From: Asparagopsis taxiformis
Lineage: Eukaryota > Rhodophyta > Florideophyceae > Bonnemaisoniales > Bonnemaisoniaceae
Length of the DNA stretch: 64,000 bases
NCBI GenBank assembly: GCA_030407315.1
Contig: JALQPE010000010.1
Span: forward strand, 24,143 to 88,142
Direction: 5' to 3'
Position numbers and translations under genes: made by a program. This document shows, in pieces, positions 43,219 through 64,000 of this stretch. Under the pieces are notes generated by a model. The model was not told the DNA's origin. It saw only the letters and a list, made by a program, of their open reading frames with translations, and did not search any database. How positions within the stretch are numbered: the stretch's first letter is position 1; each line of letters begins with the position of its first letter.

Positions 43219-43275
43219 TCGTCAAGAAATAACACACTGAAAAAGCACGTCGAAGATCTGAACAGTTAGGCTACA

Positions 43276-43787: not shown

Positions 43788-44142
43788 GTTTAATGGTATG
43801 CTACATGAATTAGATCGACTCGGATATGTCATAGCAGCATCATGTAAAACTTGAGGTGCGTTGCGCCACGTTGGCGATGAGACGTTTGGGAGTGGCGAGC
43901 GGCCAGAGCTTACGGGTTGGGACATATTTTGGAGTTGCGGAACGGCAATTTAGTTGGACTGGTGTATTCTCAATGTTGATGTGCAGAATTGTACATGGCG
44001 TGCAAGTTGTAGACACGCGTGTCACACAGATGGCGCGGCGCGTATCGTTCTATCCTGGTGGGTGTGCAGCGTACGTTCAACGACTGGAAGCATCAATATT
44101 TCACGGAGCGTAACTTGGTAACTTGTACGCGCTCGACCACTA

Positions 44143-44747
44143 ATGCAAGCTGCATCTCTTGACATAACATACACTTGTACACTCATACTACAACTGACCG
44201 GCACTCGAATCCTCATGCCGACGCGATCTGGCCTTCCCCCGCAGATAGCTCCAGACCAACTCGGCTGGGCGTCTGTCACCAAAGGCGTGCTCATATTCGC
44301 TGTCCTGCTGCAATTATGTCTCGTTCTGCAACTGCAACCGGTCCAACAACAACGTCTCCGCAATAATCCATTCTTCTCGACGCCGGACACGCGCATCCGC
44401 GACATAGCAGCGTATGTACGGCGCATATCGTCGGCTGACAATCAGCCAGGTTTCACGCTGCTCGTGTCGCGCGACGACCAAGTTCTGTACACTGGAAATA
44501 TCTCGATGGCGATTATATCCTCACGTCGCCCGACGCCTGTCACGACGTGCGAAACGTCTACGCCTTTGACGAAAGAACCGGCGCTGCCACCGTGCAGAAT
44601 TGGGACGCCATACAGGCGGTGTGGCAATCGGCCTTTTCGACACTGCGTATCTCCCCGACTGAATCGCCGTTACTGATCATGGAGCCTTCACGTCCGTGGA
44701 AAGATGCCGACAGAGCTAAAGCATTGAAGAGTGTAGGTTCGGAATGA
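44143..44747 (+). pseudogene. Membrane-protein-like and actin-like gene fragments
   Basis: The first frame (ATG 44143) has one hydrophobic segment, GVLIFAVLLQLCLVLQL, followed by PGFTLLVSRDDQVLYTGN. A frame change near 44500 leads to DGDYILTSPDACHDVRNVY and then QNWDAIQAVWQSAF with SPTESPLLIMEPSRPW. The last part resembles the actin-fold segment in which a conserved WD and W are followed by a P..P.L..E motif. Whether this is one gene or two joined fragments is unclear. It stops at 44745-44747. Confidence 0.4.
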
Positions 44748-45059
44748 TTGACGATCATATCGGGGAAGAGTCATCTAATTTCTTTAGTAAGTATACTCAA
44801 GTTGGGCGATTAGGGGAGTAGTGATTAATGTTATCGTGTGTATTCCGCCCGCAATATCACTCCGTCGTCCAGCGTCTTCGCCGAGACAGAAACGATGCTT
44901 TCCAGCAGCGATTATTTTAATATCTTTGGCAGCACAAGTATAGTACATAAGTGATCAAGCAGTACGATACCTCGGACTGGGAACGTTTCTAGGATAGGTA
45001 ACAGACTATAACTGGAGCGGGAGGAAGGGTTTTCTGGACAGGCTGTCAGAACTGTAATT

Positions 45060-45360
45060 ACTCTGTTTTCTTACAGCAAAGTCATCGTTAAGGCGGATTT
45101 TTTTCTTCAGGACAAGCTGTCAGAACTGTAAGTTCTCTGTTTTCTTACAGCAAAGTCATCGTTAAGGCGGATTTGCTTTCTCAGGACAAGCTGTCGGAAC
45201 TGCTATTCAGTTTTCTTACAGCATGGCAGTTTACCCCGGTTGTTTACAGCAAAGTCATCGTAACGATGACTTTGCTGTAAGAAAACAAAACATTACAGCA
45301 AAGTCATCGTAACGATGACTTTGCTGTAAGAAACCATGGTAAACCAACTTCTCTGTAAGC
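45060..45360. repeat. Palindrome cluster 1
   Basis: Two half-sites and two full copies of the palindrome TTACAGCAAAGTCATCG plus its complement, separated by CTGTCAGAACTGTAA-type words. Confidence 0.85.
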
Positions 45361-45429
45361 ATATGAGAGGGACTGATGTTTCTCACTCGGGAAGAAGAAG
45401 GAGGCGATTTCGGACCCCGCGAAAAAGGC

Positions 45430-46110
45430 TGCAAAGTGGTCTGAAAGGGTTGGGGTGGTTCTAGGGAGCACTAAAACGTGTTGTAATTGTACTAGGAGCT
45501 TCTGGCTTGCGTGGAAGGGCTGGTAGAATTCATCGATTTTTGGCCATCAGATTCTCACAACTGGAGATGTGATGGCCAAAATTGAACTTTGTCCGAATGA
45601 TGTGGAAGTGGTCTGTAAGGGTTGGAGTGGCTCTAGGGAGTACGGAAAAGTATTCTATGCGTTCGTAAAGCTGCTGGATGCATCGATTTCTGGCCATCAG
45701 ACTCTCACAACTGGAGATATGATGGCCAAAATTGAACTTTGTGGGAACGATGTGGAATTGGTCTGGAAGGGATGGAGTGGCTCTGGCGAGTGCGGAAAAG
45801 TGTTCTATGCGTTCGCAATGCTTCCGGCTTGCGCGTTAGGGCTGACAGAATGCATCGATTTTTGGCAACCAGATTCCCACAACTGGAGATGTGATGGCCA
45901 AAATTGAACTTTTTCGGAACGATGTGGAAGTGGTCTAGAAGGGATGGAGTGGCTCTAGGGAGCACTGAGACATGGTCTAATTGTACTCAAAGCTTCTGGC
46001 TTGCGTGGTAGGGATGCCAGAATGTATCAATTTTGGGTCATCAGATTCTCACAACTGGAGATGTGATGGCCAAAATTGAAATTTGTCGGAACGATGTGCA
46101 AGTGGTCTGG
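45430..46110 (+). repeat. About 160-bp tandem repeat, four copies
   Basis: Each copy contains GGAGTGGCTCTAGGGAG, a GCATCGATTTTTGGC-like word and ACAACTGGAGATGTGATGGC. A further piece is at 48425-48600. Confidence 0.8.
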
Positions 46111-46964
46111 ATGCCTTCAAGTAGCCTGGAAGCGTACTCTGGACAAGTTTTCGGACCTTGAAGAGGCTCAACTGCACAATTCTGATATTGAAATGAAACA
46201 TTCGTATAGTCCATTTTTTCTTGGACTGCTGGAGTCGATTGCCGTGGCCTATAGAGGAGCAATGTAGTTATGTACTGGAGCTAGAATCATTCCTCAACAA
46301 CCCATCTCTCAAGTCTCTACTCCTCCTTCATCATCCCAATCTCCCTTCCTGTGACACACCGTGCCTCTGGTGTCACTTCAAACGCCCCTCTTGTGAATTA
46401 AATACCTGTCTTCCACTGCCATAGTCTACTCATACCACTGCCTTCATTTCACTCCATGCCTACCCTCCTATCCTAGCCTAACCTGCTTCATAATCATCGA
46501 TGTAAAGTGAATATCTAGATTCCTACCTACTTGAAAGTAGGGTGTATTATAACGGTAAACGGACAGTTTTGTATAGTCAATGTGCTACACAGTACCAGGA
46601 GTAGATTTTGCGCATCGATAATCTATGCTTGATATTGGAGAGAACAGCCTCTTGTAGCCTCGGAAAATGTGCAGGCAGTACCTTTCCAGAGGTCCTAGAG
46701 GTGTTCACACCAACTCTAGTCCATTTCAACGAGTTTGAATTTCGACCGCCAGAATCTCTGTCATGAGAAAATCGTGGTTGAAATTTTGCGTGCTCCTCTG
46801 GCAATACTGAACTTTTTAGTTACCTCAGACCGGGTGAACAAGACACAGATTGCTCTTGAAAGCCGCCCGAAGCCGTCGAAACCATCCTTCCACAATGTTC
46901 CCGACTTCACAATTCCTATCTCACCCTTCCCAAGGTGAGGGAGGGACAAAGCTCCCAGCCGCTT

Positions 46965-47340
46965 ACAGCTGAGACAATTCACTAGGGATGCTTACAGCAA
47001 AGTCATCGTTACGATGACTTTGCTGTAAGAAAAGAAAACATTACAGTGGGCGAAGGATTTTACCGGGTAAAAAATCACCAAGAATTTTTTTAACGGGTAA
47101 AAATCGTGGATACTGTAATGAAACGTTTACTTACAGCAAAGTCATCGTTACGATGACTTTGCTGTAAGAAAAGGAAACATTACAGTGGGCGAAGAATTTT
47201 TACCGGGTAAAAAATCACCAAGAATTTTTTTACCGGGTAAAAAATCGTGCCGGCTGTAATGTTTCCTTTCTTACAGCAAATTCATCGTAACCATGACTTT
47301 GCTGTCAGCAACCGCGGTAAACTGCCTCAGCTGTAAGCGG
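46965..47340. repeat. Palindrome cluster 2
   Basis: Three copies of the 34-bp palindrome (the last degenerate) separated by TTTTACCGGGTAAAAAATC blocks, bounded by inverted CAGCTGAGACAATTCAC / GTAAACTGCCTCAGCTG ends. Confidence 0.85.
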
Positions 47341-48019
47341 TCTGGCCTCACCCTCTCTCTCATGTCTCTTGTCCTCCTTCATCCCAGCCTATCCCAACCT
47401 TCCTTCCTGTGTCGACTCTGGTGTCACTCCAGCCGACCCTTCGGTGAGTGCAATCCTTGTCTACCACCGCCATTATCTACTCATACTACCCCCTTCATGT
47501 TGCTGCATACCTACCCTCCCTTCCTTCCTGATTTTCCTACAATCCTAGGCTAGCCTACTTACCAACTATGTTGGTATTGAAGGCAGCTAGATTCCTAGTA
47601 ACTCAAATCTATAGTCTGCTAAAAAGGGCGATTTGGTGTGGTCACTGTGCCACACGGCACCAGGAATAGAATCTGGCCACGGATACTCTATGCTTGATCT
47701 CAGAGAGAACAGCTGCGCCAATGCTCCGAAAACGTACTGTCAGTACCTTTCCAGACGTCGTGGAGGTGCTCATGCCAGCTCTAGTTCATTTTAGGGAGGT
47801 TGAGTTTCGAGAATCAGAATTTCACTCTTGAGGAAATTGTGTTTGAAATTTTGTGCACTCCTCCCGCCGTACCAGGCAGGGCACCCAGCCCAGACCGGGT
47901 TAGCACGACGCAGAGTGCTCCTCAACACCGCTAACAGCCGTCCAAACCATCCCTCTGCCATGTTTTACGGCTTCACAATTCCTTGCTCACCCTTCCCAAG
48001 GTGAGGGAGGGACCAAGCT

Positions 48020-48130
48020 CCCAGCCGCTTACAGCTGAGGCAGTTTACCAGGGATGCTTACAGCAAAGTCATCGTAACGATGACTTTGCTGTAAACATCC
48101 CTGGTAAACTGCTCCGTCTGTAAGCCGTTG
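48020..48130. repeat. Palindrome cluster 3, one nested palindrome
   Basis: Minimal form of the family: GAGGCAGTTTACCAGGGATG, one 34-bp palindrome, then CATCCCTGGTAAACTGCTCC, so the whole 100 bp is one near-perfect inverted repeat. Confidence 0.9.
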
Positions 48131-48360
48131 GTCTCAACCCTCGATCTCATGTCTGTTGTCCTCCTTCATTATCTCCACCTCCCTTCCTGCTAAGCACCAC
48201 TTCTCTAGTGTCACTCTACCAGTCCTTTTCGTGCATGAAATACTTTTCTACCACTGCCATAGTCTACACATACTATTGCCTCTATACTTCTGCATGCCTA
48301 CGCTCCCATCTTTCTCTCCCGTGCTAGGCTTAGAGAATATCCTACTTCCTGAAGATCATT

Positions 48361-48427
48361 GTACAGTGAGGCAGTAAAAATCACTGTCTCACCGTACTGT
48401 CTGAGGCCTCCTTTTCAACACCGTAGT
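48361..48427 (-). mobile_element. Solo transposon terminus
   Basis: About 67 bp matching the last bases of the end at 54746: CACTGTCTCACCGTACTGTC, TGAGGCCTCCTTTT and the terminal CAACACCGTAGTG (48415-48427). No longer subterminal array is attached. Confidence 0.7.
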
Positions 48428-48639
48428 GTATAAGGGCTGGAGTGGCTCTGGGGAGTACAGAAAGGTGTTTTATCTGTCCGTAAAGCTTCTGGCTTGCGCA
48501 TTAGGGCTGGCAGAATGCATCGATTTTCGGTCATCAGATTCTCACAACTGCAGATGTGATGAATTTCGGCCATTGGCAAAATTCAACTTTGTCGGAACGA
48601 CGTAGATTTGGACTGGATGCCTCCAAGTGCATGCACTTG

Positions 48640-48725
48640 AAAGTGCACTTAGTCCAAAAAATTGTCCAGAGTACGCTCCCAGGCGATGGCCTGGAAGTGT
48701 ACTCTGGACAAGTTTTTGGACCTGG
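48640..48725. repeat. Inverted duplication absent from a related copy
   Basis: Arms GTCCAAAAAATTGTCCAGAG and CTCTGGACAAGTTTTTGGAC around a short spacer. The related copy at about 46108-46165 has only the right arm. Confidence 0.8.
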
Positions 48726-49254
48726 AAGAGGTTGAATTGCACAATGCTTGTGTTGAAATGAAACATTTATATGGCCCATTCTTTACTTGGACTGCTGAAA
48801 TCCTATCTACTCGAGAGTAAAGTATATAAAAACTGGAAACAGACGGTTTTGTATAGTCAATGTGCCACACGGCACCAAGAGTAGATTTTGCCCTCCGATA
48901 ATCTATGGTTGATTTCAGAGAGGATAACCGCGTGCAGTCACAGGACATGTGCTACCAGATCCTTCCCAGAGGTCCTGGAGGTGTTCACACCAACTCCAGT
49001 CCACTTTAACGAGTTTGAATTTCGAAAGTCAGAATCTCTGTCGTGAGAAAATTGAACCATTTCCGACCACGTGGTCGAAATTTCGTGCACTCCTCCAACC
49101 ATACTAGACACAACACCCAGCTCAAACCGGGTGTAAACAACACAATGTGTTACCTAATGCCGCCTACAGCCGTCCAAACCATTCCTATACCCTGTTTCCT
49201 GACTTCATAATTCCTTCCTCACCCTTCCCTAGGTCGGAAAAGGACGGAAGTCCC

Positions 49255-49735
49255 TGCCGCTTACAGCGGAAGCAATTTACCGGGGATGCTTACAGCAAAG
49301 TCATCGTTACGATGACTTTGCTGTAAGAAAATAAATCATTACAGCAGCCATGATTTTCTACCCGGTAAAAAAATTCTTGGCCACTGTAATTGAAACGCTT
49401 TCTTACAGCAAAGTCATCATAACGATGAATTTGCTGTAAGAAAATAAATCATTACAGCAGCCACGATTTTTCACCCGGTAAAAATTCTTGCTGATTTTTT
49501 AAACGGTAAAATTTTTTTGGCCACTGCAATGGAAACGTTTCCTTACAGCAAAGTCATCGTTACGATGACTTTGCTGTAAGAAAATAAATCATTACAGCTG
49601 CCATGATTTTTTTACCCCGTAAAAAAATTCTTGGCCACTGTAATTGAAACGCTTTCTTACAGCAAAGTCATCGTAACGATGATTTTGCTGTAAGAATCCC
49701 CGGTAAACGGCTTCCGCTGTAAGGGGCTGAGAGTT
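49255..49735. repeat. Palindrome cluster 4
   Basis: Four copies of the 34-bp palindrome spaced by ATTACAGC ... TTTTACCCGGTAAAAA ... CACTGTAAT blocks, bounded by inverted GCGGAAGCAATTTACCGGGG / CCCCGGTAAACGGCTTCCGC ends. Confidence 0.9.
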
Positions 49736-50143
49736 CCGTCCCCCTCGCACCTAGCGAAGGGTGAGGAAGGAATTGGGAAGTCAGGAACATGGCTCAGCAA
49801 AACGTTTGTACGGCTGTGAGTGGCTTCCAGGAGCATTCTGTGTCATGTGTTATCTCAGCAACGTCTCTTATAGTCGAATCTCACGGGTTGTCAAGGTCTA
49901 AAACTGGTCTCCCCCTACGGTCTAGCTAGTGAAATCATGTAAAGTTGTAGACTAATACAAAAAAGTAGCAATCAATAGGCTTACTAGCACTAAACTATGA
50001 CATGAAGGTCAGATGTATAGATGAAAATAGAAAGGTGGGCTAAGCGAATAATGTTGAGATGAGAAAGACAGAACTTCATAGCAGGGAACAATAGCATAGG
50101 TTTTAATACTTCTCGTATGCTATCTATTGCTCCTGTCATACTT

Positions 50144-52262
50144 TTAATATTCGACGGTGTGGATGTGGTTCGTGAGGACGTCCTTCTTCGTCTTCAAGTA
50201 GATGTGGCCGCGCGTGGGCAGACCATAGACTAAATTCTGCTCCCACAGGAAGATCTCCTCACCTGAAGCCGACCCCGTAATGGTAAAGGTCACCGCGATC
50301 AACTAAGACGGAATAGGGTGGCACATAGAAGTGGTTAACGGGAACCTTCCACATGTCGGCGTCCGTATGGACCAGGCATACATGACTATAAGGTGCAGCT
50401 ACTATAAAGAACCCATCGGCTCCGCTCGACATCATGAAATAGGATGGGGATTGGGTAGGTCCGACTCCTCAAAATTGGGATACTCAGAAGTCCGTGTGCC
50501 CATCCTGGTCCGCAGCCCCATCTGTTTTAAGAAGCAGCCGTAATCCTGTCTTCGGGAAAAAGACAGGATCCTCACCCTCCATTCCCAACTTCAAGAAATC
50601 CGCACAAACACCAAGAGCAAGCTCTGCCACCAACTTGTTCCTGTACATATCCAAATTCCCCTCCTCCAGCTTTTCGCACAATTCACACCGCGGCAGGGGG
50701 AGTCGCCCACGACCACCATCTATGCGGTCCTTCGCAGCACCCACGTTGTGGATGAAATGCCACGGCGAAGGATCAAAACCGGGCTTGGCGAAATCTGGCG
50801 GCTCGTCCTGTGGTTTCCTGTCTTCATCATCAGAATCAGACTGCTGGGAGGATTTCTGTGGCTTTTCAACCTCCTCAACCAGTGGGAACTGCCGAGAAAA
50901 GTGACTGAAGAGGTCATGCGTCGCACTACCAGCCGTGGACGACTGCAAGAGGACTTCCACAACAACCACCCCCATGTTGTCCAGCAACGACGCTTCACCA
51001 CAAAGTACTATTCCACCACCGAGTCCTCAGCACCTGGCGATGCAGCTGCCAGGAATGCTGCCGCCTTTATTTCCGCCCGCACCGTCTCTACCGTCGTAAT
51101 TTCCATATAGTACTTCATCGGGCTACCAGACGCAATTGCACTGGGGAGAACGGCGGCCACATTCTCATCGACGATACTGTCGGGAATAGGATTTTCATGG
51201 GCGTCGTCGAACTGGAGAATCGGCTCCCGAGAACGTCCTCTGGAAGCCGACTTGGATATCTTTGACAACGACTTTGATGAAGTCTCACTGAGCTTCCTCT
51301 TTTTGGTAGAGGGCTCGGGCGTCGCAGAAGCGGTTTCCCAGTTGCGCTTCCCGAGGATGGAGCTTTTACCCGCATCCTTGGGTGCGCTCTCCAGTTCGAA
51401 GACCTGAACAGGGCTCGCACCACCCGCCGTCGCTGTTCCACCACAACCGGAACGACTCTCTTTCAGGCAGGTACTCCTTCTGGGTATCACTTTCCCAGAA
51501 GTTTCCACTCCGGACGATGCAGACACGACAGGGGTAGTGGCAGAAACAGAGGCAGCCTCGGAATAGCTGGAAGAATCTAATTGAGGTGGTACTACCTCAA
51601 TTGGATTCTTCAAAGGCAAAGGAATGGAGGATGAAGGGATGGTCAGGGAAATGGAAATGGAAGGGATGGCGGAATCATGACCACATGTGACTGGGAGCGC
51701 AGCATGTGGGATGTGTGGGTCCACCGCGTAAAATTGTTTCCGCATTTACATGTCGCGGTAGCCAGTTACGCGCAGGAGCATTTTCCTCGCGTCCTTTCAA
51801 AACACAGACTTCCGTTTGGGAAAGATGTTCTCAAACTTGGCGCCATTGGGAGGGCCTTCCTTGGGATGTAAGTCCGCTCAGAACCCCTTCTTGGGCACCA
51901 TCGGCGCAAAAACTTCGACAACGCGTGAGTGAATGTCGAAGCTCTTGCTCGGGTCACCCACGCTGGGAATGGAGCCATCCAGCATCCTCAACACATCCGA
52001 AACGTTCCAATACTCGGTCACCTCCTTCACGTACCCGAAGATTTCCAACAAACCAGCAATCCATTCCTGCCCAATGGTACCAACCGAGTTCGGTTTCAGC
52101 CCGGCCCACCAACGGCTACAAGTGTAATACGCCGTCATCTCGAGGTTGACATTTTGGACGTCCGGAGCACCCCTAAACGATCCGTTGAACAACAATTTCA
52201 CCGTACACCCAGCCAGATTCTCCGTCGAAGAGAACTGCACGAACTCTGGCCTGTTCGGAATA
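50144..52262 (-). pseudogene. ParB-dioxygenase fusion, copy C, 5'-truncated
   Basis: Near-identical to copy D where they overlap. The 5' part (52262-51878, IPNRPEFVQFSSTENLAGCT) is the C-terminal region of the ParB half. After frame breaks, a frame from about 51745 to 51008 is the key stretch: it starts in the ParB half (DPHIPHAALPVTCGHD) and runs without interruption through an S/T/K-rich linker with a probable nuclear signal (STKKRKLSETSSKSL) into the dioxygenase start (PMKYYMEITTVETV). The rest reads PVFFPKTGLRLLLK and GHTDF (iron motif), then an in-frame TGA at about 50484-50486. Beyond it come YVPPYSVLVDRGDLYHYGVG with the distal His, and VLTNHIHTVEY before the stop at 50144-50146. Sequence upstream of 52262 is replaced by unrelated DNA. 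Confidence 0.65.
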
Positions 52263-54746
52263 GTTTTCTGCAACCAAATCCGTTTTCAAGAATTACTCCA
52301 TCGTTGCAGACTTCTTCAACCACTAGAGAACGACCTCTGATATTCACTTTGCGAGGTTCAACTTGCACTTCAGACGAACTATACTGGGCAATATTGATGC
52401 ATGTCTCGCTTGCTGAAGGAGATTTACTCTTTTCCGCTACTTCTTCGCTATAGTGCAGAAGTATATTTCTCCGCCACTAAATTCAACCATTACGAAACCT
52501 TTCCTGGCTTTCATTCGATCCAATGAACTGGTTCACCACAATGATTTGTCCTATGCTCATTACTTTATGCACAATGATTGCTATTTCATCCGGACTCGAC
52601 CTACTCAATATCGTTTTGCTATCTTGTATCGCATTCCCTAAACACCAGCCTGGCCAAGACGTATCCACTTCCGTTTGTTACGCAGTGATGCTCTAAGCAC
52701 TAATACTGAATCTGATTTTCTCATGCACGTAGTTCCTACTCGTATACTCTACCATATTCTCGGCCCTATTCACAAGGTGAAAACACGATGTCTCGTTGAA
52801 TCGTACTCGGTTTGATATCTTAAATTAGCATACATTTATATATTGCAATGCAGACTCACTGCTCGCTTGCAACATGAAAATTAAAAAAATTCTTCGACAC
52901 TGCTGTTTCCTAACCGCCACTATCCACGTGGCCCGCTTTGACTGCCTGCCAAGTGTACTCGGAGCATACGATGACGTTATCGATATATACCATCCACATC
53001 ATCACTGGAAGCGCGGACTCCTCGTCCAGAAAAGTGCGCCATTTTTCTTACTCTTCACCTCCCCTGTCCTGTAGGCCCCATATGCTAGTGTTTTTCCTAT
53101 ATTTCTGTAGTGATGACGTCATCCTAGACCATAAAAGGCGGTAGAAGATACGATAATGTGCGCCTTCTTTGCCAGATCATGTGCTTCCAAGCGTAATTCG
53201 CAGCCTAGGCATCGTTTTTCTGGGCCTCCCATCGCACCGCTCTGTTTCAAAATTATCCCTCTATTGTTCTCCTACACGTCTTTTCCGCCCGCAGAGTGCT
53301 ACTTAAACGACAGATTCTGGAAATCCCTGTTTCCATCTCCATATCCGTCGGAAACAAAGCATCAGTAATTACGCTTCCGGAGCAGTGTACATGGTACGTC
53401 ACCACATTTCACGCCACTAACCCAGTATTCTATTCGTTTTCTCAAGTTTCCAGTCGGTGAGTTTTCCAATTCTCCTTTCGTTCATCTTTCTCTCTCACTC
53501 CTCCATTTTTGTTGCTCTGCCTGTGAGTACAGATTTCGATTTGGGATGCAATGGTATTCGTTAAGGTACGTTAGTCTCCTGGTAACCATCAATTTCCCTC
53601 TCCAATTCAACGTTACTAACTTGTTTCCTTTCACTACATCATTTTTTTCTTCTTCTTTTCTTCATTTCCTATCTTATTCATGCAGCTCAATCAGTTGATA
53701 GATTTGTAGACTTTCTGGTACTTTTAGTTTTACTCTTCAGAATAGTCTTGGTTGTAGTAGTAGTTCTAACATAGGGATATTTTACTCTCAATGTAGCCTG
53801 CGCAAATAAACAAATCCAGAGTGAAGCTTCCCATATCGCACCCTCTTAGATTGCTACCGATCCTACCGCTTGTACTTCTCTCTAGCTCATAGTCACTACG
53901 AAATAAAAATTCCTAGCCGTACAATTGTGACCATTCCCACGTAGATACCATCCAATACCCATCCTCGTAGCACTAGAACTGCCTCCCTCTACCCCAAAAA
54001 GATGCCCACGACAGCATGACGCTCCATCTCATCCACCACTCCCAGACACTGAATTTTACTATATCAGGACACTACTTTTACTGTCTCCAGGTGCTGCCCA
54101 GGGCAGCACGAAACACTGTCTCCAGGTACTGCCCAGGGCAGCACGAAACACTGTCTCCAGGTGCTGCCCAGGGCAGCACGAAACACTGTCTCCAGGTACT
54201 GCCCAGGGCAGCACAAAGTACTGTCTCCAGGTACTGCCCAGGGCAGCACAAAATACTGTCTACAGGTGCTGCCCAGGACAGTGAAAATCACTGTGTCCAG
54301 GTACTGCCCAGGACAGTGAAAATCACTGTCTCCAGGTACTGCCCAGGACAATGAAAATCACTGTCTCCAGGTACTGCCCAGGACAGTGCACCGTGTTGGT
54401 TCCATCTATTGTCCCAGGCAGCGTATTTCACTATCCGGCCATGTTGCCTTGGCCAATACAAAACACTATCCGCCAACACTGCCCAGTACAGTAGATTACA
54501 TCATATCCAACTATTGACTAAATCATTAATTTTTACTGTCTCCATTCACTGCCTCAGACAGTACGGTGAGACAGTGTTTTTTACTGTCTGCAGACAGTGT
54601 TCCGTACTGTCTACCAGACAGTGCAAATCACTGTCTCCAAGTGTGGCATTAATTTTCATTTGCCGCATAGTGATTTTTACTGTCTCAGAGAGTAAAAATC
54701 ACTGTCTCACCGTACTGTCTGAGGCCCCCTTTTCAACACCGTAGTG
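52263..54746 (-). mobile_element. CACTA-like element, family 2, right-hand end segment
   Basis: Ends with CAACACCGTAGTG at 54734-54746. From about 52480 to the end it is an inverted copy of 61392-64000. The last 690 bp are subterminal repeats: 36-bp units with CTGTCTCCAGGTGCTGCCCA at 54070-54400, then ACAGTGATTTTTACTGTC-type palindromes. The interior is non-coding. The dioxygenase gene to the right is cut exactly at the terminus. The 220 bp at 52263-52480 are unassigned. Confidence 0.6.
54070..54400 (+). repeat. 36-bp subterminal repeat array
   Basis: About nine units, each with a GTACTGCCCAGGGCAGCAC-type palindrome. The inverted counterpart is at 61750-62270. Confidence 0.9.
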
Positions 54747-57700
54747 TGGCACATACAGCCTATGAATGGGAACCTTCCACATATCGGCGTCCGGATTGGC
54801 CAGGCATACATGACTATAAGGGGCAGCTACTATAGAGAATCCATCTGCTCCGCTCGACATCATGAAATATGATGGAGACTCGGTAGGTCCTGCAACACGA
54901 CTCGTTGATACCTTGAAGTCCGTGTGCTCATCCTGGTCCGCAGCCCCCTCTGCTGTAAGAAGCAGCCGCAATCCTGTCTTCGGGAAGAAGACAGGATCAT
55001 CACCCTCCATTCCCAGCTTGAGAAACTCCGCACAAACACCAAGAGCAAGCTCTGCCACCAACTTGTTCTTATACATATCCAAATTTTCCTCCTCCAACTT
55101 GTCGCACAACTCACGCCGCGGCAGAGTGAGGCGCCCACGACCACCATCTATGCGGTCCTTCGCATCACCCACGTTGTGGATGAACTGCCACGGCGAAGGA
55201 TCGAAGCCGGGCTTTGCGAAAGCTGGCGGCTCGTCCTGTGGCTCCCTGTCGTCATCGTTAGAATCAGACTGCTGGGAGGTTTTTTCAACCTCCTCAACCA
55301 GCGGGAACTGCCCAGCGAAGTGACCGAACAGCTCATGCGTCGCACTCCCAGCCGTGGACGATTCCAACAAGCGTTCCAAAACAATAACCCCCAAGTTCTC
55401 CAGCAACGCCCGCTTCACCGCAAAGTACTGTTCCACCACCGTTTCCTCGGCTCCCGGCGATGCAGCTACCTGGAATGCTGCCGCCCTCATTTCCGCCCGA
55501 ACCTTCTCCACCGTCGTACTTTCCATATAGTACTTCATCCGGCTGCCAGACGCAATTGCGTTGGGGAGAACGGCGGCCACATTCTCATCGACGATGCTGT
55601 CGGGAATGGGATTCTCCTGGGCGTCGTCGAACTGGAGAACCGGCTCCCGAGAGCGACCTCGGGAAGCCGACTTGGATTTCTTTGACGACGACTTTGATGA
55701 AGTCTCACCGAGCCTTCTCTTTTTGGTAGAAGGCTCGGGCGTCGCAGAAGTGGCTTCCAAGTTACGCTTCCCGAGGATGGAGTTTTCACCCGCATCCTCG
55801 GGGGCGCTCTCCAGCTCGACGACCTCCACAGCACCACCCGCCGTTCCACCACGACCGGAACGACTCGCTTGCAGGCGGGTACTCCTTCTGGGCATCACTT
55901 TCCTCCCAGAAGTTTCCACTCCGGGCGGTGCAGAATCACTGACTTCAATGATATCTTCGTCAGGATCTGCACCGCCCTTCGCACTGCTGCCCTCGACCAC
56001 ATTCTCGGGAGTAGGGCCCTCCGTCGAAATCCTCGCAACCGTCTTCTGTCCAACCCCACCGGATGGTGAAGGGACGAAACTGTCATCGCTGGAGCTTCCC
56101 GAACTGCTAGCAGATGCAGAACGGGAAGCTTCGACAGCGGGGGCCGGAGCAGCAGGGTGCTGCTCGGCAGCCGGAGTCGCAGCTCAGGCTGCGAAGCCGG
56201 TGAGACCTGCTCCTGCGCGGCTTGGACAGGACGGTTGGGGGTACCAGTCCCGGCGTGGGAAACTGGACCAGAGCGTTCGCTGCCATCCTGGGGACCACGC
56301 GCAGTCGGCTTGACCGGGGTCACCGCAGGGGAGGATGCCGACACGGCAGGGGTAGAGACAGGAACAGGGGCAACCTCGGAATCGCTGGAAGATTCCAGTT
56401 GAGGTAGTGGGGGCAAAGGAATAGAGGATGAAGGGATGGGCAAGGAATTGGAAGAGGAAGGGATGGGGGCATCATCACCACATGTGGCTGGGAGCGCAGC
56501 ATGTGGGATGTCTGGGTACATCGCGTGAAAGCGTTTCCGCATAATCATGTCGCGGTACCCAGTGACGCGCAGGAGCATTTTCCTGGCGTCCTTCCCGAAG
56601 ACAGACTTCTTACGGGGAAAAATGTTCTCCGACTTGTAACCATCGGGGGGGGGGGCTTCCTTGGGACGGAAGTCTGCCCAACACCCCTTCTTGGGGACCA
56701 TCTGAGCAAGAACTTCGACAACGCGCGAGCGAATGTCGAAGCTCTTGCTCGGGTCACCCACGCTGGGAATTGAGCCATCCAGCATCCTCATCACATCCGA
56801 CACGTTCCAGTACTCGGCCACCTCCTTCACGTACCCGAAGATTTCCAACAAACCAGCAATCCATTCCTGCCCAATGGTACCAACCGAGTTCGGTTTCAGC
56901 CCGGCCGACCGACGGCTACAAGTGTAATACGCCGTCATCTCGAGGTTGACATTTTGGACGTCCGGAGCACCCCTAAACGATCCGTTGAACAACAATTTCA
57001 CCGTACACCCAGCCAGATCCTCCGTCGAAGAGAACTGCACGAACTCCGGCCTGTTCGGAATACTCGACCAGTACTTGAAAGCAGGGCTTTCAATGGTCTT
57101 GAAACCTTGGGCGATGGAGACGTAGCGCATGAGGACATGAGCTGTCTCGGACGAATCCAGCTCAGCGCTTTCCGTTCTTTTATGTATTGAACGGTCGGCT
57201 CGATCTTCTTCTTTCCCAGGCGGTGGATATTGATGAACTCCATCACAGAGCACACATTGTCAGCAACTGTTACCTCGCTGACATTGTGGGTGTGGAAGTT
57301 CATCAGCCGTGAAAGCGGGAGTACTTCTTCGGAGCAGAAGACATCCCGGCCAAGCCGAGTCGGTGGGAGGAGAAAGTCGACTGGAATGGTTCCAAATCGA
57401 CGGTAAATGTCTGAACTGACAAAACTCCTCCCATTCTGGACTGTCCTTCGCAGGAGCAGGTCCAGCCGACTCGAGAATGGCCTTCAACGCGGTCACTCGG
57501 TGAGATCCATCGACATATTCAGTCGGACTTTGCATTGGAATCAATCACCTCGCAGACGGACACGCGTGAAGCAATCACGGAAAATCCCTGAGTGAGAAAC
57601 GTTTTCTTCAACTCATCAACGCGATGCGGCCTGACCACCCTGGACACGACTGCCGGAGGAGAAACATCCAGAGGGGAAATGAAGACTGGAATGTTTCGGC

Positions 57701-58202
57701 AGCTCTCCGGACTTATGTCGTAGTCCACATCCACCGGGATGGGCACTGTGCCAGGGTAGGCCAGCCTGGTGCTGCGGAGAGGCTTGTTCGGTACGATGTC
57801 ACGAGCGTTGTGATCATCGACCTTCTCCGCATCCTCTGCCAAGTCGCTGCCGGACGCGATGATCATGTCCGGAGCAGGCGAGCTAGGCAGAGGGAGCACC
57901 AGATCCCTCGACGGCTGGCGCCGCTTCGGCAGATTGAGCCGGAAGCGGAGTTGCGGGAACGCCAGCGTCGATTGTCGGGACAACCGCGGGATCGGAAGCG
58001 GAAGGGGGGGGAGGGGACGGGCTTAGGTGCTGGGCTGAGCTGGGTCAGCGCTGCAGCAGCTTCGCAAACGTCCATGGGGACAGGGGGGCCAGAGAAGGAG
58101 AAGGAGAGGAGAAGGAGAGGGAGAAGGAGTGGGAGAATCGTTGTCACGGCGGCTGGCAGAGCGCACCTGGCGGTCGAAAGCGTTGGGGGATTGTTGAGCC
58201 AT
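54747..58202 (-). pseudogene. ParB-dioxygenase fusion, copy D, decayed
   Basis: Starts at ATG 58202 (MAQQSPNAFDRQVRS). Proline-rich sequence with frame changes leads to ISPLDVSPPAVVSRVVRPHR and the ParB core YVDGSHRVTALKAI (about 57515-57475), then GKKKIEPTVQYIKERKA, then a long frame (57190-56180) carrying the rest of the ParB half. Near 56180 the frame moves into the dioxygenase frame (from about 56170): SGSSSDDSFVPSPSGG, PSTKKRRLGETSSKSSSKKS, MKYYMESTTVEKV, KTGLRLLLTAEG, the iron motif HTDF, and ADMWKVPIHRLYVP. It then stops short at 54746 because a transposon end follows, so the distal His and Arg are lost. At least four frameshifts are present. About 95 percent identical to copy C over the shared part by eye. 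Confidence 0.65.
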
Positions 58203-58404
58203 TGTTTTGATGAGTGATTGACAAACGAAGAGTGAAAGATTGAGAAAGAGAGAAGAAGATCTGAACGACAAGCTGTTTTGCTGCGTAAGCTGAGTAAGAT
58301 AGGCGAAACTCAGAGAAACTGACATATTCCTATTAGTATACACCCTGGTAATGATTCAGCGGTTGACCAATCCGAACCTTCCACATTACTTTTCGTTGTA
58401 CGAC

Positions 58405-58620
58405 AATTACAGCTCAGGCAGTTTACCAAGGATCCTTACAGCAAAGCCATCGTTGTGATGACTTTGCTGTAAGAAAACGTTTTCATTACAGCGGCCAGGA
58501 ATTTTTTTACCGGGTAAAGAAATCATGGCCACTGTAATGAAACCTTTCCTTACAGCAAAGTCATCGTAACGATGACTTTTCTGTAAGCATCCCTGGTAAA
58601 CTGCTCCATCTGTAAGCCGT
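58405..58620. repeat. Palindrome cluster 5
   Basis: Two slightly degenerate copies of the 34-bp palindrome with one TTTTTTACCGGGTAAAGAAA block between, bounded by CAGGCAGTTTACCAAGGATC and its inverted partner. Confidence 0.85.
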
Positions 58621-59154
58621 TGGTCTCAACCCTCGCTCTCATTCTGTTGTCCTCCTTCATCATCTCCACCTACCTTCCCCCTACACATCACGTCTCTAAT
58701 GTCACTCTGCCCACCCTTTGGTGCATGAAATATTTTCTTACCACTGCCTAGTACACATACTGCTGCCTTCATACTTCTGCATGCCTACCCTTCAATCTTT
58801 CTTCCATCTTTCTCTACCGTGCTAGGCTTAGACCATGCTCTGTGCACATCTGACTTACTTAATATCATTGTATAGTTAGAAACTAGAATAATAATTACAT
58901 CACTAGAGTACACTGCAAATGTTAGTAACTATGGTTGGTGTGGTACACAACACCCTACCTCCTTCATGAGTAAACTTTGCGCACAGAACCGTTCAATACC
59001 AGGTAGTGCAGCCAGCGCAAACCAGGCTTGCACGACGCAGAGTGCTCCCCAGAGCCGTCAACAGCCGTCCAAACCATCGTTGTACGATGTTCCCGGCTCC
59101 ACACTTCCCTTCTCACCCTCCCAGGGTGGGAGACGGACGAAACTCCTAACCGCT

Positions 59155-59470
59155 TACACCGAAGCCGTTTACCCGGGATGCTTACAGCAAAGTCATCGTT
59201 ACGATGACTTTGCTGTAAGGAAAGGTTTGATTACAGTGGTGAGAAAAATTTTACCGGGTAAAAATCAGCAAGAATTTTTTACCCGTTAAAAAATTGTGGC
59301 CGCTGTAATGATTTGATTTCTTACAGCAAAGTCATCGTTAGGATGACTTTGCTGTAATGATTTGATTTCTTACGTCAAATCAAATCAATGATTTGATTTC
59401 TTACAGCAAAGTCATCGTAACGATGACTTTGCTGTCAGCACCCCAGCGGAACTGCATCATCTGTAAGCCT
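59155..59470. repeat. Palindrome cluster 6
   Basis: Three copies of the 34-bp palindrome, the last two separated by a duplicated ATGATTTGATTTCTTAC word. Confidence 0.85.
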
Positions 59471-59686
59471 CCTCACCTCAATGTTGCAGCTGAAGACGAC
59501 TGCGATATTACCTTGTTCTTTGTAGTAGTGCCCGCCATAGTTTCCTCCCCTTCTCATATCAAATTGAGTATTGTATATCTCCTGACCCGTCTACATACGC
59601 AAACGTCATGTACTAGCCTAACTTTCATCGTTTACTTGAAGGCGGCCTTCATGCCTGCCATAGAATGCTATTAAGAACTAATTTCA

Positions 59687-60565
59687 TCAGATATCTAAAC
59701 GCTCCCAGTAGTTGACATTGAAGGGAGGCTGTAGCAACTTCTCCCTGGAAGTTCGCAGTGATAGATGGGACCGGATAGGATGCTGGTACCTCACCGAAGA
59801 ACGACCCTCCGCGAATCTCATTCCTCCGTGGTACACGTCCGTTCGGCATACAAGCAGGGAATACGGTGGGATGCGCACGTTCGTCACTGGCACGCGGTAC
59901 TTGTCTTTCGCTGGATGACTTAGGCACACATGGCTGAACTTGGCGATACGAATGATGAACCCATCTGCACCAGCAGCCATCATGAAATATGATGGCGAGT
60001 TGAGAGGACCAGTTCCAGTTCCCTCACGGACGGGAACATCGGTATGCATAAGTTGCTCCTGACTACCTTCTGCGGTCAAAATCAGACGAAGACCCGTTTC
60101 TGGAAAGACCACCGCTTCTTCTCTTCCAAACCCTAGCTTCAGGTTCTCCGCACAAATCGCCTTACCTAGCTCCAGAATCAGCTTGTTCCTGTATTGTCGC
60201 GCGCTTTCTTGCTCAAGGTCATCGCAGATGCTTTTCCGGTCCGTCTTGAATACACCAGTGCTGTCTTTCGGTCGAAGTGGTTTCCACGGGTTCTTCTGAC
60301 TTGCACTTGAGCCACTTGTAGTACCTTGGAATGTGCTGGCCATCTGTGTGAATAACTCGTGCGTAGCTGCTCCCACTGTAGTAGAAGAGAAAATGTCTTG
60401 CAACACCACGTAACCAAGCTCGTCGATCATTCTTCTCTGGTAGCTGAAGTATTGTTGGCTTTCACAAGAACCGAGGGGACATACCAAAGTAGAGTAGCCT
60501 GCAGCTGCTTCCATTATCTCCGTCCGGATTGTATCAATGTCTTCTTCTGTGATATAATACTTCAT
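59687..60565 (-). CDS. 2OG-Fe(II) dioxygenase domain, copy E, intact catalytic half
   Basis: A 292-residue uninterrupted frame from MKYYITEEDID, the same junction word as in copies C and D. Residues 48-58 are DELGYVVLQDI, typical of PhyH-type enzymes. KTGLR appears as ETGLRLILTAEG. The iron ligands are H174-T-D176 and H246 (VYHGG), with R259 (VRYQH) or R265 (IRSH) placed to hold 2-oxoglutarate. The domain ends YWERLDI. The frame stays open upstream of 60565 to about 60690 (FTDEQENSLPDRTF), and a different frame then carries a basic segment (EKKSRVNARKR). The native protein was therefore the longer ParB fusion, and the visible ATG may not be the natural start. The upstream half is missing past 61391. 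Best candidate for a complete catalytic domain of this type besides copy B. Confidence 0.65.
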   Translation of the reverse strand: MKYYITEEDIDTIRTEIMEAAAGYSTLVCPLGSCESQQYFSYQRRMIDELGYVVLQDIFSSTTVGAATHELFTQMASTFQGTTSGSSASQKNPWKPLRPKDSTGVFKTDRKSICDDLEQESARQYRNKLILELGKAICAENLKLGFGREEAVVFPETGLRLILTAEGSQEQLMHTDVPVREGTGTGPLNSPSYFMMAAGADGFIIRIAKFSHVCLSHPAKDKYRVPVTNVRIPPYSLLVCRTDVYHGGMRFAEGRSSVRYQHPIRSHLSLRTSREKLLQPPFNVNYWERLDI

Positions 60566-61391
60566 TCTCGAGTTGGAAGGAACGCATAAAGGCAGCTTCT
60601 CAGGTATCTCCTCTGCGAATGTGCGGTCTGGAAGGGAGTTTTCTTGCTCATCAGTGAAGAGTGGTGCTTCTTTCCAGTCGTTCGTTTTCTTGCATTGACT
60701 CTACTCTTCTTTTCCCGGGGAGGCCCAATCTCAATGTTGTCATCCGGCGTATTGGGCTCAGAAAACTTCGCGCTAGTATCTTCCCTTCTTCGCTTCTTAT
60801 GCAACCTGGACTCGTTTTCATCGCCGCTTCCACCAGAACTCCTGCTCTTCCCGAATTCTCCTTGTCCACTTCGGCCGGGCTAGTGCTGTAAGTTTCTGGT
60901 TCCTGATTCGAAGTTTCAATATCACAGAGCGGTTCTGCGCATCTCCAGCTTGTTGTCCAGGCGTGTCTATGTCCATGCGACCACTATTGTCCAAGTTGAT
61001 ATCCAGACTTTGCGTATCGCCGCTTTGTTTCCTTCCCTGAGGAACATCTTCTCTGACAATCCTTCCCGGCGAATTATCCCTGGCACGACTTTCCGCTCTG
61101 CCCTTGAAGCTGAAAGAAGTTCCTGTTCTTTTTGGAGAACAGCAAGACGTTCTGCTTCCCTCTTCTCAGCTGCTGCAAGACGCGTGGCAGGACGTTCCTG
61201 TCCTCCCTCTTTTGCTGCGGCAGGACGGTCTTCTGCTTCTTCGGGGTGCTCAGAGGTGCCTCTTCTATTGCTTTCGTCGCGACAGCAGGAATCACTTCTT
61301 CAGCCACCACATTGGAGTAATTTCCTGTTCTTCCTCCACAACAGCAGAAACTTCCTGCTCTACTTGGGCTTTCGGCAGAACTCCTTCTTCT
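60566..61391 (-). pseudogene. Linker of copy E, cut by a transposon end
   Basis: Three frames hold coding-like pieces: KKRRREDTSAKFSEPNTPDD, a coiled-coil-like LAAAEKREAERLAVLQKEQE, and MDIDTPGQQAGDAQNRSVIL. They fit the charged linker between ParB and dioxygenase halves. The sequence stops at the CACTACGGTGTTG terminus (61392), so the ParB half is gone. Confidence 0.45.
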
Positions 61392-64000
61392 CACTACGGT
61401 GTTGAAAAGGGGGCCTCAGACAGTACTGCGAGACAGTGATTTTTACTGTCTGAGACAGTAAAAACACTATGCGGCAAATGAAAATTAATGCCACACTTGG
61501 AGACAGTGATTTGCACTGTCTGGCAGACAGTACGGAACACTGTCTGCAGACAGTAAAAACACTGTCTCACAGTACTGTCTGAGGCAGTGAATGGAGACAG
61601 TAAAAAATTAATGATTTATTCAATAGTTGGATATGATGTAATTTACTGTACTGGGCAGTGTTGGCGGATAGTGTTTTGTATTGGCCAAGGCAACATGGCC
61701 GGATAGTGAAATACGCTGCCTGGGACAATAGATGGAACCAACACGGTGCACTGTCCTGGGCAGTACCTGGAGACAGTGATTTTCACTGTCCTGGGCAGTA
61801 CCTGGAGACAGTGATTTTCACTGTCCTGGGCAGTACCTGGAGACAGTGATTTTCACTGTCCTGGGCAGTACCTGGAGACAGTGATTTTCACTGTCCTGGG
61901 CAGACCTGTAGACAGTACTTTGTGCTGCCCTGGGCAGTACCTGTAGACAGTACTTTGTGCTGCCCTGGGCAGCACCTGTAGACAGTACTTTGTGCTGCCT
62001 GGGCAGCACCTGTAGACAGTACTTTGTGCTGCCTGGGCAGCACCTGTAGACAGTATTCGTGCTGCCCTGGGCAGCACCTGTAGACAGTACTTTGTGCTGC
62101 CCTGGGCAGCACCTGTAGACAGTATTTTCGTGCTGCCCTGGGCAGCACCTGGAGACAGTATTTCGTGCTGCCCTGGGCAGCACTGGAGACAGTATTTCGT
62201 GCTGCCCTGGGCAGCACCTGGAGACAGTATTTCGTGCTGCCCTGGGCAGCACCTGGAGACAGTAAAAGTAGTGTCCTGATATAGTAAAATTCGGTGTCTG
62301 GGAGTGGTGGATGAGATGGAGCGTCACGCTGTCGTGGGTATCTTTCTGGGGTAGAGGAAGGCAGTTCTAGCGCTATGAGGATGGGGCATGGACGGTATTC
62401 ATATGGGAATGGACAGAATAGTACGGCTAGGAATTTTATTTCGTAGTGACTATGAGCTAGCGAGAGGTATACGCGGTAGGATAGGTAGCAATCTAAGAGG
62501 GTGCGATATGGGGAAGCTTCACTCTGGATTTGTTTATTGCGCAGGCTACATTGAGAATAAACAATCCCTATGTTAAAATGCTACTACAACTAACACTATT
62601 CCGACGAGTAAAACTAAAACTACTAGAAAAGTCTAGAAAATCTATCAACTGATTGAGCTGCATGAATAAGCTAGGAAATGAAGAGAAGAAGAAAAATGAT
62701 GTAGAGAAAGGAAACAAGTTAGTGACGTTGAATTGGAGAGGGAAATTGATGGTGATTAGGAGACTAAGTACCTTTAACAAATACCATTGCATCCCAAATT
62801 GAGATATGTACTCACAGGCAGAAAAGAAAATTAGTGGAGAAGTGGTAAGAGAGAAAGATAAATGAAAGTAGAATTGGAACACTCACCGACTGGAAACCTG
62901 AGAAAAGAGAAAACGAATAGAAAACTGGGTAGTGGCGTGAGTTGTGGAAAACGTACCATCATGGTCATATCCGTCGGAGACAAAGCAACAACTTTGGCCT
63001 TGGGAGCCGTATTGATGATCTAAAACTTACGCTTTGGAAGCAGTTTAGATGATCTATACGGCTTCCACGGCCAGGGTTGTTGCTTTGCTTCCGACGGATA
63101 TGAAGATGGAAACAGGGATCTCCAGAATCTGTTGTTTAAGTAGCACTCTGCGGGCGGAAATGACGTGTACTCTAACAATAGAGGGATGAATTTGAAACGG
63201 AGCGGTGCGATGGGAGGCCCAGAAAAACGATACCTAGGGTGCGAATTACGCTTTGAAGCACATGACCTGGCAGAACAGGCGCAAAATTATTGTATCTTCT
63301 ACCGCCTTCTCTAGTCTATAATGACGTCATCACTACAGAAATATAGGAAAAAACACTAGCATATCGGGCCTACTGGAAAGGGGGAGGCGAGGAGTAGGAA
63401 AAATGGCGCACTTTCCTGGACGAGGAGTCCGCGCTTCCAGTGATGATTTGGACGGTATATATCGATGACGTCATTGCATGCTCTGAGCACACTTGGCAGG
63501 CAGTCAAAGCGGGCCACGTGGATGTGGGCGGCTAGGAAACAGCAGTGTGGGAGAAATTTTATAATTTTCATGTTGCAAGCGAGCAGTGAATCTGCATTGC
63601 AATATATAAATTTATGCTAATTTAAGATATCACACCGAGTACGATTCAACGAGAGATTGTGCTTTCAACTTGTAAATAGGGCCGAAAATGGTAGAGTATA
63701 CGAGTAGGAAGTACGTGTATGAGAAATCAGATTCAGTATTAGTGCCTAGAGCATCACTGCGAAATAAACGGCCGTTTTCCGGAAAATGGATACATCTTGG
63801 CTGGGTTGTGGTTAGGGGATGCGATTAAAGATAGCAAAACGATGTGAGTCCGGATGAAATAGCAATCAATGTGCATAAAGCAATGAGCATAGGGCAAAGC
63901 ATTGTGGTGAACCAGTTCATTGGATCGAATGAAAGCCTGGAAAAGGTTGTAACGGTTCAAAGAGTAGTACTGTATTGAGATAGTAGTCATGTCATAGAAG
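61392..64000 (+). mobile_element. CACTA-like element, family 2, left-hand end segment, runs off window
   Basis: Starts CACTACGGTGTTG (61392-61404), then ACAGTGATTTTTACTGTC-type palindromes, then about 14 of the 36-bp units (61750-62270), then non-coding sequence inverted relative to 52480-54000. The copy differs from its partner by an inverted duplication at 62966-63102. No gene is seen inside, and it continues past the window edge. Confidence 0.6.
62966..63102. repeat. Imperfect inverted duplication within the element
   Basis: Arms of about 55-60 bp beginning CATATCCGTCGGAGACAAAG and ending CTTTGCTTCCGACGGATATG. The partner copy at about 53340 has only one arm. Confidence 0.8.

What the first reader, a model, noticed from the sequence alone, without database searches (positions are those of the whole stretch)
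50144..61391. ParB-like domain fused to a 2OG-Fe(II) dioxygenase: a repeated mobile gene type
Copy C has one uninterrupted frame (about 51745-51008) that starts in the ParB half and ends in the dioxygenase half. Copies A, B, D and E have the same two modules in the same order and strand, separated only by frameshifts or truncation. Copies B and E keep the full HxD...H...R set. A ParB DNA-binding or CTP-switch-type domain joined to a nucleic-acid-type oxygenase would be a targeted base-oxidation or demethylation enzyme. I know of TET/JBP genes linked to KDZ transposons in fungi, but not of this fusion.
Basis: partly seen in the sequence, partly recalled or inferred. Interest (0 to 1): 0.9.

Follow-up and report, generated by a model that had tools for sequence, protein, structure and literature searches.

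The report
Red-algal transposon carrying DNA-mark enzymes
A 25-kilobase mobile DNA element, whose end sequence occurs more than nine hundred times in what is likely a red alga's genome, carries genes that join a likely DNA-addressing module (ParB-like) to a likely oxygenase and, in another gene, to a DNA-methylase plus SET domain, which would let the element rewrite the chemical marks on its own DNA and escape silencing.

Summary
The fusion is real, but not in the window copies: those are broken or cut. Elsewhere in the same genome the E-type gene is one open frame of 1077-1095 aa holding both the ParB-like motif and the oxygenase-like motif (14 of 14 long-frame loci fetched). A second, diverged family (copy A) has a 1430-aa single-frame relative. 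The E-type gene sits in a 25.3-25.6 kb element that starts and ends with CACTACGGTGTTGA; its left end occurs 938 times exactly, control 0. The same element encodes a long transposase-like protein, a second ParB-oxygenase gene (broken in the two copies read), and a ParB-like + N6/N4 DNA methylase + SET protein of 1186 aa. Thirteen palindromes, confined to intergenic spacers of the copy examined, are candidate ParB addresses. The oxygenase assignment rests on HxD...H...R across five diverged families; no profile library recognises it and AlphaFold2 failed. Phycobiliprotein genes suggest a red alga. ParB-methylase, SET and TET/JBP genes in transposons are published separately; I found no report of ParB-oxygenase or ParB-methylase-SET. 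Best reading: an anti-silencing, self-marking toolkit.

The parts
59687..61391 (-). copy E: linker and oxygenase-like domain (HTD ... VYHGG ... PIRSH) of gene 1; ParB half missing, cut by the element end at 61392; frame broken upstream of 60700
   Evidence: 59690-60700 is 97% identical to the C-part of P0001 in alignment A4
54747..58441 (-). copy B: gene-2 type ParB-like part (57519-57719, 57260-57544), linker, oxygenase start (HTDF); broken by frameshifts and cut at 54746
   Evidence: 96-98% identical to the C2637 copy
49850..52285 (-). copies C/D: diverged (about 84-92%) gene-2 fragment; C = linker plus oxygenase start, D = oxygenase with HTDF in 50484-51026 and LYHYG in 50259-50468
19151..23264 (-). 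copy A: N-part 22461-23264, ParB-like part 21424-22455 (IDGLHR), oxygenase-like part 19151-21442 (HNDF ... VQHAG ... TTRYH); frames broken here, single-frame relative L027:1269-5561 (1430 aa)
3411..4947 (-). copy F (not in the finding): third diverged oxygenase-like family (HLDF; EHSG and IRSH in another frame), related to both E (29%, 2e-19) and A (26%, 7e-14)
58433..59433 (.). spacer between gene 2 and gene 1 with palindromes AGCAAAGTCATC-N5-GATGACTTTGCT (candidate ParB address sites)
45075..49672 (.). stretch with further palindrome arms, next to copies C/D
61392..64000 (+). 5' end of another copy of the 25-kb element (CACTACGGTGTTGAAAAGG, ACTGTCT terminal repeats); runs to the contig end
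52476..54746 (-). 5' end region of a minus-strand element; end at 54746; a 3' end in the matching direction lies at 39675
39675..48428 (-). piece bounded by a 3' end (39675) and a 5' end (48428); the same flanks occur on C183, and C212 has the same spacing of ends
1..1366 (+). 3' end of a further 25-kb element (99% to L034), end at 1366
25825..27903 (+). start of the methylase(-SET) gene beside copy A; relative L062:1402-4655 (two overlapping frames) reaches the SET end; no ParB motif seen in the part read
30823..33882 (-). ParB-like (VVDGMHR) + N6_N4_Mtase protein, 1019 aa, no SET domain found by Pfam
8574..12596 (+). transposase-like genes (label recalled, no Pfam match); 10332-12593 is a 25-28% homologue of the transposase-like frame in the 25-kb element

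Best explanation
A 25-kb CACTA-ended transposon, in what is likely a red alga, encodes two kinds of fusion protein, a ParB-like module joined to a likely 2-oxoglutarate/iron oxygenase and a ParB-like module joined to an N6/N4 DNA-methylase domain and a SET domain, and these are predicted to be steered by their ParB-like modules to palindromes between the element's own genes, where they would rewrite DNA and histone marks so that the transposon escapes silencing. Shown by sequence: both architectures in single frames, their co-residence in one bounded element with a long transposase-like gene, high copy number with near identity, and palindromes confined to the spacers of the copy examined. Inferred: the fold and activity of the oxygenase, DNA binding by the ParB-like module, the palindromes as its sites, and the anti-silencing purpose. 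The most likely division of labour is that the methylase-SET protein writes an activating or self-marking state (N6A/N4C methylation with histone methylation), while the oxygenase removes or oxidises opposing methyl marks on the same DNA.
For: Single frames: L009 1087 aa; 14 of 14 fetched loci keep GSHRIAAL and HTDVPV in one frame of 1077-1095 aa (these 14 were picked for long frames); 69 of the 134 scored matches lie in frames of 1000 aa or more (my count). Copy-A relative of 1430 aa. Element bounds: CACTACGGTGTTGA at both ends; 938 exact left ends and 347 exact right ends, controls 0; lengths from C2637:5075-30722 and C1830:75535-100826. Methylase-SET protein over Pfam cut-offs (N6_N4_Mtase 2.4e-16, SET 4.3e-6), with relatives of 43%, 38% and 31% identity from other records; the first two keep the DGAHR motif, methylase and SET. 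ParB-like: phrog_1033 (ParB-like partition protein) 0.003 and 0.013, GmrSD_N 0.074, DndB 0.13, sulfiredoxin 1, all overlapping the motif stretch. Oxygenase: H-x-D, then a distal H, then R-x-H kept in E, gene 2, A, F and the L024 gene. Constraint: pN/pS 0.20 in the N-part, 0.10 in the oxygenase part, 2.14 in the linker over 14 copies; 6 of 16 domain variants nonsynonymous against 12.4 expected, P=7e-4. Palindromes: 26 arms (13 pairs) in the 25,648 bases of the C2637 copy, all in three spacers, 0.003 arms expected.
Against: No Pfam, PHROG or NCBIfam family matches the oxygenase pieces tested even at E<=10 and there is no PDB profile match. Both AlphaFold2 models failed (mean pLDDT 33.5 and 35.0). 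ParB hits are sub-threshold, and comparable or better scores go to other families: phrog_4272 (unknown function) 1.7e-5 on P0010's ParB stretch, phrog_30083 (unknown) 0.0032 on the E-type piece, a dehydrogenase 0.021, a growth factor 0.66 in the PDB search. Pfam finds nothing for copy A's ParB part. The 14 copies were chosen for open frames, so the selection test is biased towards constraint, and it rests on 41 variants. The second ParB-oxygenase gene of the element is broken in the two copies read. Two-base flanks agree in only half of the end pairs. Nothing shows expression, methylation or binding. Palindromes may equally be promoter or terminator elements.
Confidence: 0.45

Rival explanations
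1. The ParB-like modules are transposition or replication factors: they bind the palindromes to regulate transcription and copy number of the element, and the oxygenase acts on proteins or transposase (hydroxylation), not on DNA marks.
For: In the C2637 copy the palindromes sit in the spacers between genes, where promoters and terminators lie. Fold-search neighbours, though non-significant, are small-molecule hydroxylases, not nucleic-acid oxygenases. No TET/JBP or other family match was found.
Against: The partner gene carries an N6/N4 DNA methylase, so a DNA substrate is the simpler common theme. The published brown-algal parallel is read by its authors as self-modification of the transposon (PMC12477816, passage).
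Confidence: 0.25
2. The C-part is a degenerate or non-oxygenase fold, kept as a structural or DNA-compaction module; the H, D and R residues are conserved for another metal site.
For: No profile or model support for the fold.
Against: The full HxD...H...R order recurs in five families of about 24-42% identity. Ranks 1-34 of a fold search are 2-oxoglutarate oxygenases, although E is above 1 and TM-scores are about 0.1. pN/pS is 0.10 on 4 variants.
Confidence: 0.15
3. The genes are passive passengers, captured host or viral genes hitch-hiking in a large transposon without benefit to it.
For: Gene 2 is broken in both element copies read, and the window's ParB-oxygenase copies are broken or cut.
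Against: Both repeat types carry a ParB-oxygenase gene and a methylase-SET gene. Just over half of the 134 scored gene-1 copies (69) lie in long frames, and the domains look constrained.
Confidence: 0.15

Closest known systems
ParB-like + N4C/N6A methyltransferase accessory protein of the brown-algal Sola1-1_Ec32 transposon (PMC12477816, passages read)
   Different: No SET domain and no ParB-oxygenase partner are mentioned in the passage I read; another transposon superfamily
Giant EnSpm elements with several accessory genes in red algae (Petroll et al. 2025, seen only as cited in PMC12477816; paper not held)
   Same: Likely the same broad class of element and host group
   Different: I could not read whether an oxygenase or SET fusion is described there
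TET/JBP-carrying DNA transposons of fungi (Kojima 2025, PMC12730594; abstract and passages read)
   Same: Transposon-borne DNA-type dioxygenase, including CACTA/EnSpm carriers, proposed to counter methylation-based silencing
   Different: Here the oxygenase has no detectable TET/JBP profile match, is fused to a ParB-like module and travels with a methylase-SET gene; fungi against likely red alga
[quoted passage not shown] title only, in the reference list of PMC12730594)
   Same: SET domain encoded by a DNA transposon
   Different: By title a Harbinger element; no methylase or ParB fusion mentioned in what I saw
PhyH-type 2-oxoglutarate oxygenases (EctD, KanJ, HygX; PhyH label recalled)
   Same: HxD...H...R motif; best though non-significant fold-search neighbours
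   Different: No significant sequence or fold match; small-molecule enzymes
ParB/sulfiredoxin superfamily (ParB, DndB, GmrSD N-domain, Srx; grouping recalled)
   Same: DG-x-HR motif, sub-threshold profile hits
   Different: No CTP-switch evidence; eukaryotic fusion architectures

Membership tests
CACTA/EnSpm-type DNA transposon | terminal inverted repeats beginning CACTA | tested here: met
   CACTACGGTGTTGA at both ends; 938 and 347 exact ends, controls 0
CACTA/EnSpm-type DNA transposon | 2-3 bp target-site duplication | tested here: inconclusive
   identical 2-bp flanks in 5 of 10 end pairs (0.6 expected), pairs chosen by position only; the window's own end 39675 matches neither 48428 nor 54746
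CACTA/EnSpm-type DNA transposon | subterminal short repeats | tested here: met
   ACTGTCT/AGACAGT 34 times in the first 2 kb, 12 in the last 425 bases, 0-1 per kb between, in the C2637 copy
CACTA/EnSpm-type DNA transposon | TNP2-type transposase | tested here: inconclusive
   open frame of at least 1041 aa upstream of gene 1, homologous to window 10332-12593, but no Pfam match at E<=10; TNP2 likeness is recalled
2-oxoglutarate/Fe(II) oxygenase | HxD...H...R residue set | tested here: met
   present in E, gene 2, A, F (across a frame break) and the L024 gene
2-oxoglutarate/Fe(II) oxygenase | double-stranded beta-helix fold | tested here: inconclusive
   AlphaFold2 pLDDT 33.5 and 35.0; fold matches E>1; no profile match
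2-oxoglutarate/Fe(II) oxygenase | enzymatic activity | not testable with these tools
   no assay
TET/JBP dioxygenase | match to the TET/JBP family profile | tested here: not met
   no Pfam family at E<=10 for four oxygenase pieces
ParB/sulfiredoxin superfamily | DG-x-HR motif and profile match | tested here: inconclusive
   motif in 6 of 6 aligned pieces; hits phrog_1033 0.003/0.013, GmrSD_N 0.074, DndB 0.13, Srx 1; none of these for copy A
ParB/sulfiredoxin superfamily | CTP-dependent clamp loading at palindromic sites | not testable with these tools
   candidate palindromes only
ParB-methylase transposon accessory protein | ParB-like module plus N6/N4 methylase in a DNA transposon | tested here: met
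   L023/L031 gene, Pfam N6_N4_Mtase 2.4e-16 over cut-off, DGAHR motif and phrog_1033 0.003 (sub-threshold), inside element bounds

The most novel reading that the evidence does not exclude
The transposon carries its own complete, address-guided epigenetic kit: a DNA methylase joined to a histone methylase as writer and an oxygenase as eraser, each with its own ParB-like loader reading the element's palindromes. It would be the first eukaryotic mobile element with a self-encoded write-and-erase system targeted by ParB clamps that spread along DNA.
Probability: 0.28. Interest if true: 0.92.

Novelty: new variant of a known kind. Interest (0 to 1): 0.75.

Why it matters
Transposons that carry single chromatin or DNA-mark genes are known. 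One that carries targeted fusions for both writing and probably erasing marks would make the arms race between transposons and silencing directly testable. It would also offer a natural model for site-directed DNA methylation or oxidation in a eukaryote. The near-identical copies (mean gene-1 divergence 0.32% over 14 copies) suggest recent activity.

Tried and rejected
TET/JBP membership: rejected, no profile match. Phage origin of the oxygenase: no match of the copy-A piece among phages, and none of 228 pattern hits of alignment A5 confirmed in viral contigs. The methylase-SET protein had no confirmed relative in viral contigs (2 pattern hits) and 24.6-25.3% matches to the methylase part in 4 phage records. 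Relatives of the ParB-oxygenase protein in a set of 5.8 billion: only itself, in two searches that reach close relatives. Fold prediction of E-type and A-type oxygenase parts: failed. I ran a fold search on the A-type model although the tool calls matches of low-confidence models meaningless, and use it only as a hint. The region upstream of gene 1 first looked like an independent repeat; it proved to be the element's own 5' end. The ends of the copy-A element were not found. The genome-wide count of the methylase-SET gene was asked for twice and not answered. Literature: the ten searches listed no paper that I recognised as joining ParB and a dioxygenase, or ParB, methylase and SET, in a transposon; they cover the open library only, and most hits were seen as listings.
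Full report
What was checked. The window is contig C10, 24143-88142, of an unnamed 141.5-Mb assembly of 3156 contigs. The ParB-oxygenase copies in the window are broken or cut. Copy C's single frame (51008-51745) spans the linker and the start of the oxygenase part only. Copy B ends at 54746, where a CACTA end begins, so it has lost the distal H and R; copy E is cut at 61391 in the same way.

The fusion is real elsewhere in the genome. E's oxygenase part has 134 scored matches in the genome, at 99-100% identity, out of 3685 first-look candidates. By my count 69 of the 134 lie in frames of 1000 aa or more. I fetched 14 loci chosen for long frames. In 14 of 14, one frame of 1077-1095 aa holds both the ParB-like GSHRIAAL and the oxygenase-like HTDVPV. 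In a set of 5.8 billion proteins two searches found one cluster, the same protein, and nothing else at E<=0.01. Copy A is a second family: 118 scored matches of its ParB part, with a single-frame relative of 1430 aa holding both IDGLHR and HNDF. A third family, F, at 3411-4947 and broken there, links E and A (29%, 2e-19 and 26%, 7e-14), and a fourth type lies at L024:4496-8000.

The carrier. Comparing copies fixed both ends of the E-type element. It starts CACTACGGTGTTGAAAAGG and ends with the inverted CACTACGGTGTTGAGAATGAAA. It is 25,648 bases in C2637 and 25,292 in C1830. The left end occurs 938 times exactly and the right end 347 times, with 0 in both controls. Two-base flanks agree in 5 of 10 position-paired ends; the window's own right end at 39675 agrees with neither candidate left end. 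In gene order it carries a long transposase-like frame (at least 1041 aa in L021; its start is seen in another copy, L030), homologous to window 10332-12593; gene 1 (ParB-oxygenase); gene 2 (a ParB-oxygenase paralogue, broken in the two copies read); and, on the other strand, a 1186-aa ParB-like + N6_N4_Mtase + SET protein and a 526-537-aa protein without a significant family. Pfam does not recognise the transposase-like frame, so the CACTA/EnSpm label rests on the ends, the subterminal repeats and recalled motif likeness. Beside copy A, too, lies a methylase-SET gene (L062, two overlapping frames, no ParB motif seen in the part read).

The modules. The SET and methylase domains pass Pfam's own cut-offs in the element's protein and in the two relatives tested, P0011 and P0012. 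Relatives from other records are 43%, 38% and 31% identical; P0011 and P0012 also keep the DGAHR motif, while P0013 has no ParB-like motif in its aligned N-part. The ParB-like part is weaker: motif DG-x-HR, sub-threshold hits to a phage ParB family (0.003 and 0.013), GmrSD_N and DndB (0.074, 0.13) and sulfiredoxin (1). These overlap the motif stretch and belong, as I recall, to one superfamily. Against this, families of unknown function scored better on the same stretches (phrog_4272, 1.7e-5, and phrog_30083, 0.0032), and clearly unrelated families scored at similar levels (a dehydrogenase 0.021; a growth factor 0.66, ahead of sulfiredoxin). For the oxygenase part no library matched; the single-sequence PDB search of the copy-A piece gave two antibody chains at E above 1. 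The evidence is the H-x-D ... H ... R-x-H order kept in E, gene 2, A, F and the L024 gene. Two AlphaFold2 jobs failed. A fold search on the poor A-type model gave 84 matches at E<=10, none at E<=0.001, of which 50 were shown. Ranks 1-34 are 2-oxoglutarate oxygenases, many chains of three enzymes (HygX, KanJ, EctD), with E 1.2-4.2, probability at most 0.05 and TM-scores about 0.1; unrelated proteins begin at rank 35. I treat this as a hint only.

Constraint and sites. Over the 14 gene-1 copies mean divergence is 0.32%. pN/pS is 0.20 in the N-part (7 synonymous, 5 nonsynonymous), 2.14 in the linker (3, 22) and 0.10 in the oxygenase part (3, 1). Six of 16 domain variants are nonsynonymous against 12.4 expected, P=7e-4. 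The sample was chosen for open frames. The C2637 copy has two repeat systems: ACTGTCT repeats in its ends (34 in the first 2 kb, 12 in the last 425 bases), and AGCAAAGTCATC palindromes, 26 arms, found only before gene 1 (4 pairs), between genes 1 and 2 (5 pairs) and between gene 2 and the methylase gene (4 pairs), against 0.003 arms expected. Around copy A in the window another palindrome, GTGCCGTACGGCAC, occurs six times. ParB proteins typically load at palindromes (general knowledge), so these are the natural candidate addresses; that is inference.

Host. Contig C469 carries nine full-length phycobiliprotein matches, two of them with identical scores and perhaps one gene at both ends of a circular map, plus two partial ones. 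There are ten chlorophyll-binding hits and actin hits. From general knowledge such a phycobiliprotein set marks a red-algal plastid. The species was not identified, and that C469 and C10 belong to one organism is assumed from the assembly.

Known or new. In print, from what I read: a ParB-like N4C/N6A methylase protein in a brown-algal transposon, with similar proteins cited for green and red algae, and giant EnSpm elements with accessory genes in red algae (PMC12477816, passages); TET/JBP dioxygenases in many fungal DNA transposons, including EnSpm, proposed to counter silencing (PMC12730594, abstract and passages); and, by title only, Harbinger elements with a SET domain (reference). The red-algal paper itself is not held, so part of this element may be described there. 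I saw no report of a ParB-oxygenase fusion or a ParB-methylase-SET protein in ten searches of the open library. I therefore call it a new variant of a known kind: the principle of transposon-borne mark enzymes is known; the pairing of an addressed writer with an addressed likely eraser I did not find.

Noticed in passing
28215-30425 (-): 736-aa protein with DUF7869 (3.5e-46), beside the ParB-methylase gene 30823-33882; possibly the transposase of another element type.
   Followed up: partly
22461-23264 and 30826-33882: The N-part of copy A (FPYMFDGAEGPPETMGG...FYPWDTRMM) resembles the C-end of the ParB-methylase protein (YPYKYGGIEPPPGTLKG...FAWDLNKM): perhaps a shared small domain.
   Followed up: no
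39675-54746: A minus-strand 3' end at 39675 with two 5' ends, 48428 and 54746; contig C212 has nearly the same spacing (98276/107107/113339) with TA flanks.
   Followed up: partly
L034:493-2106, L035:5927-7507: 526-537-aa protein near the 3' end of the 25-kb element, no significant family.
   Followed up: partly
L024:4496-8000: A further ParB-oxygenase gene type (IDGGHR; HTDY) directly next to the element's 5' end in contig C2637, in more than one frame.
   Followed up: partly
L043:486-2500: A 59-69% relative of the window's ParB-methylase protein in contig C1620.
   Followed up: no
6871-7272 (-): Possible ParB-like start of copy F (VDDSHVDLLFRKMVMKGF), not tested.
   Followed up: no
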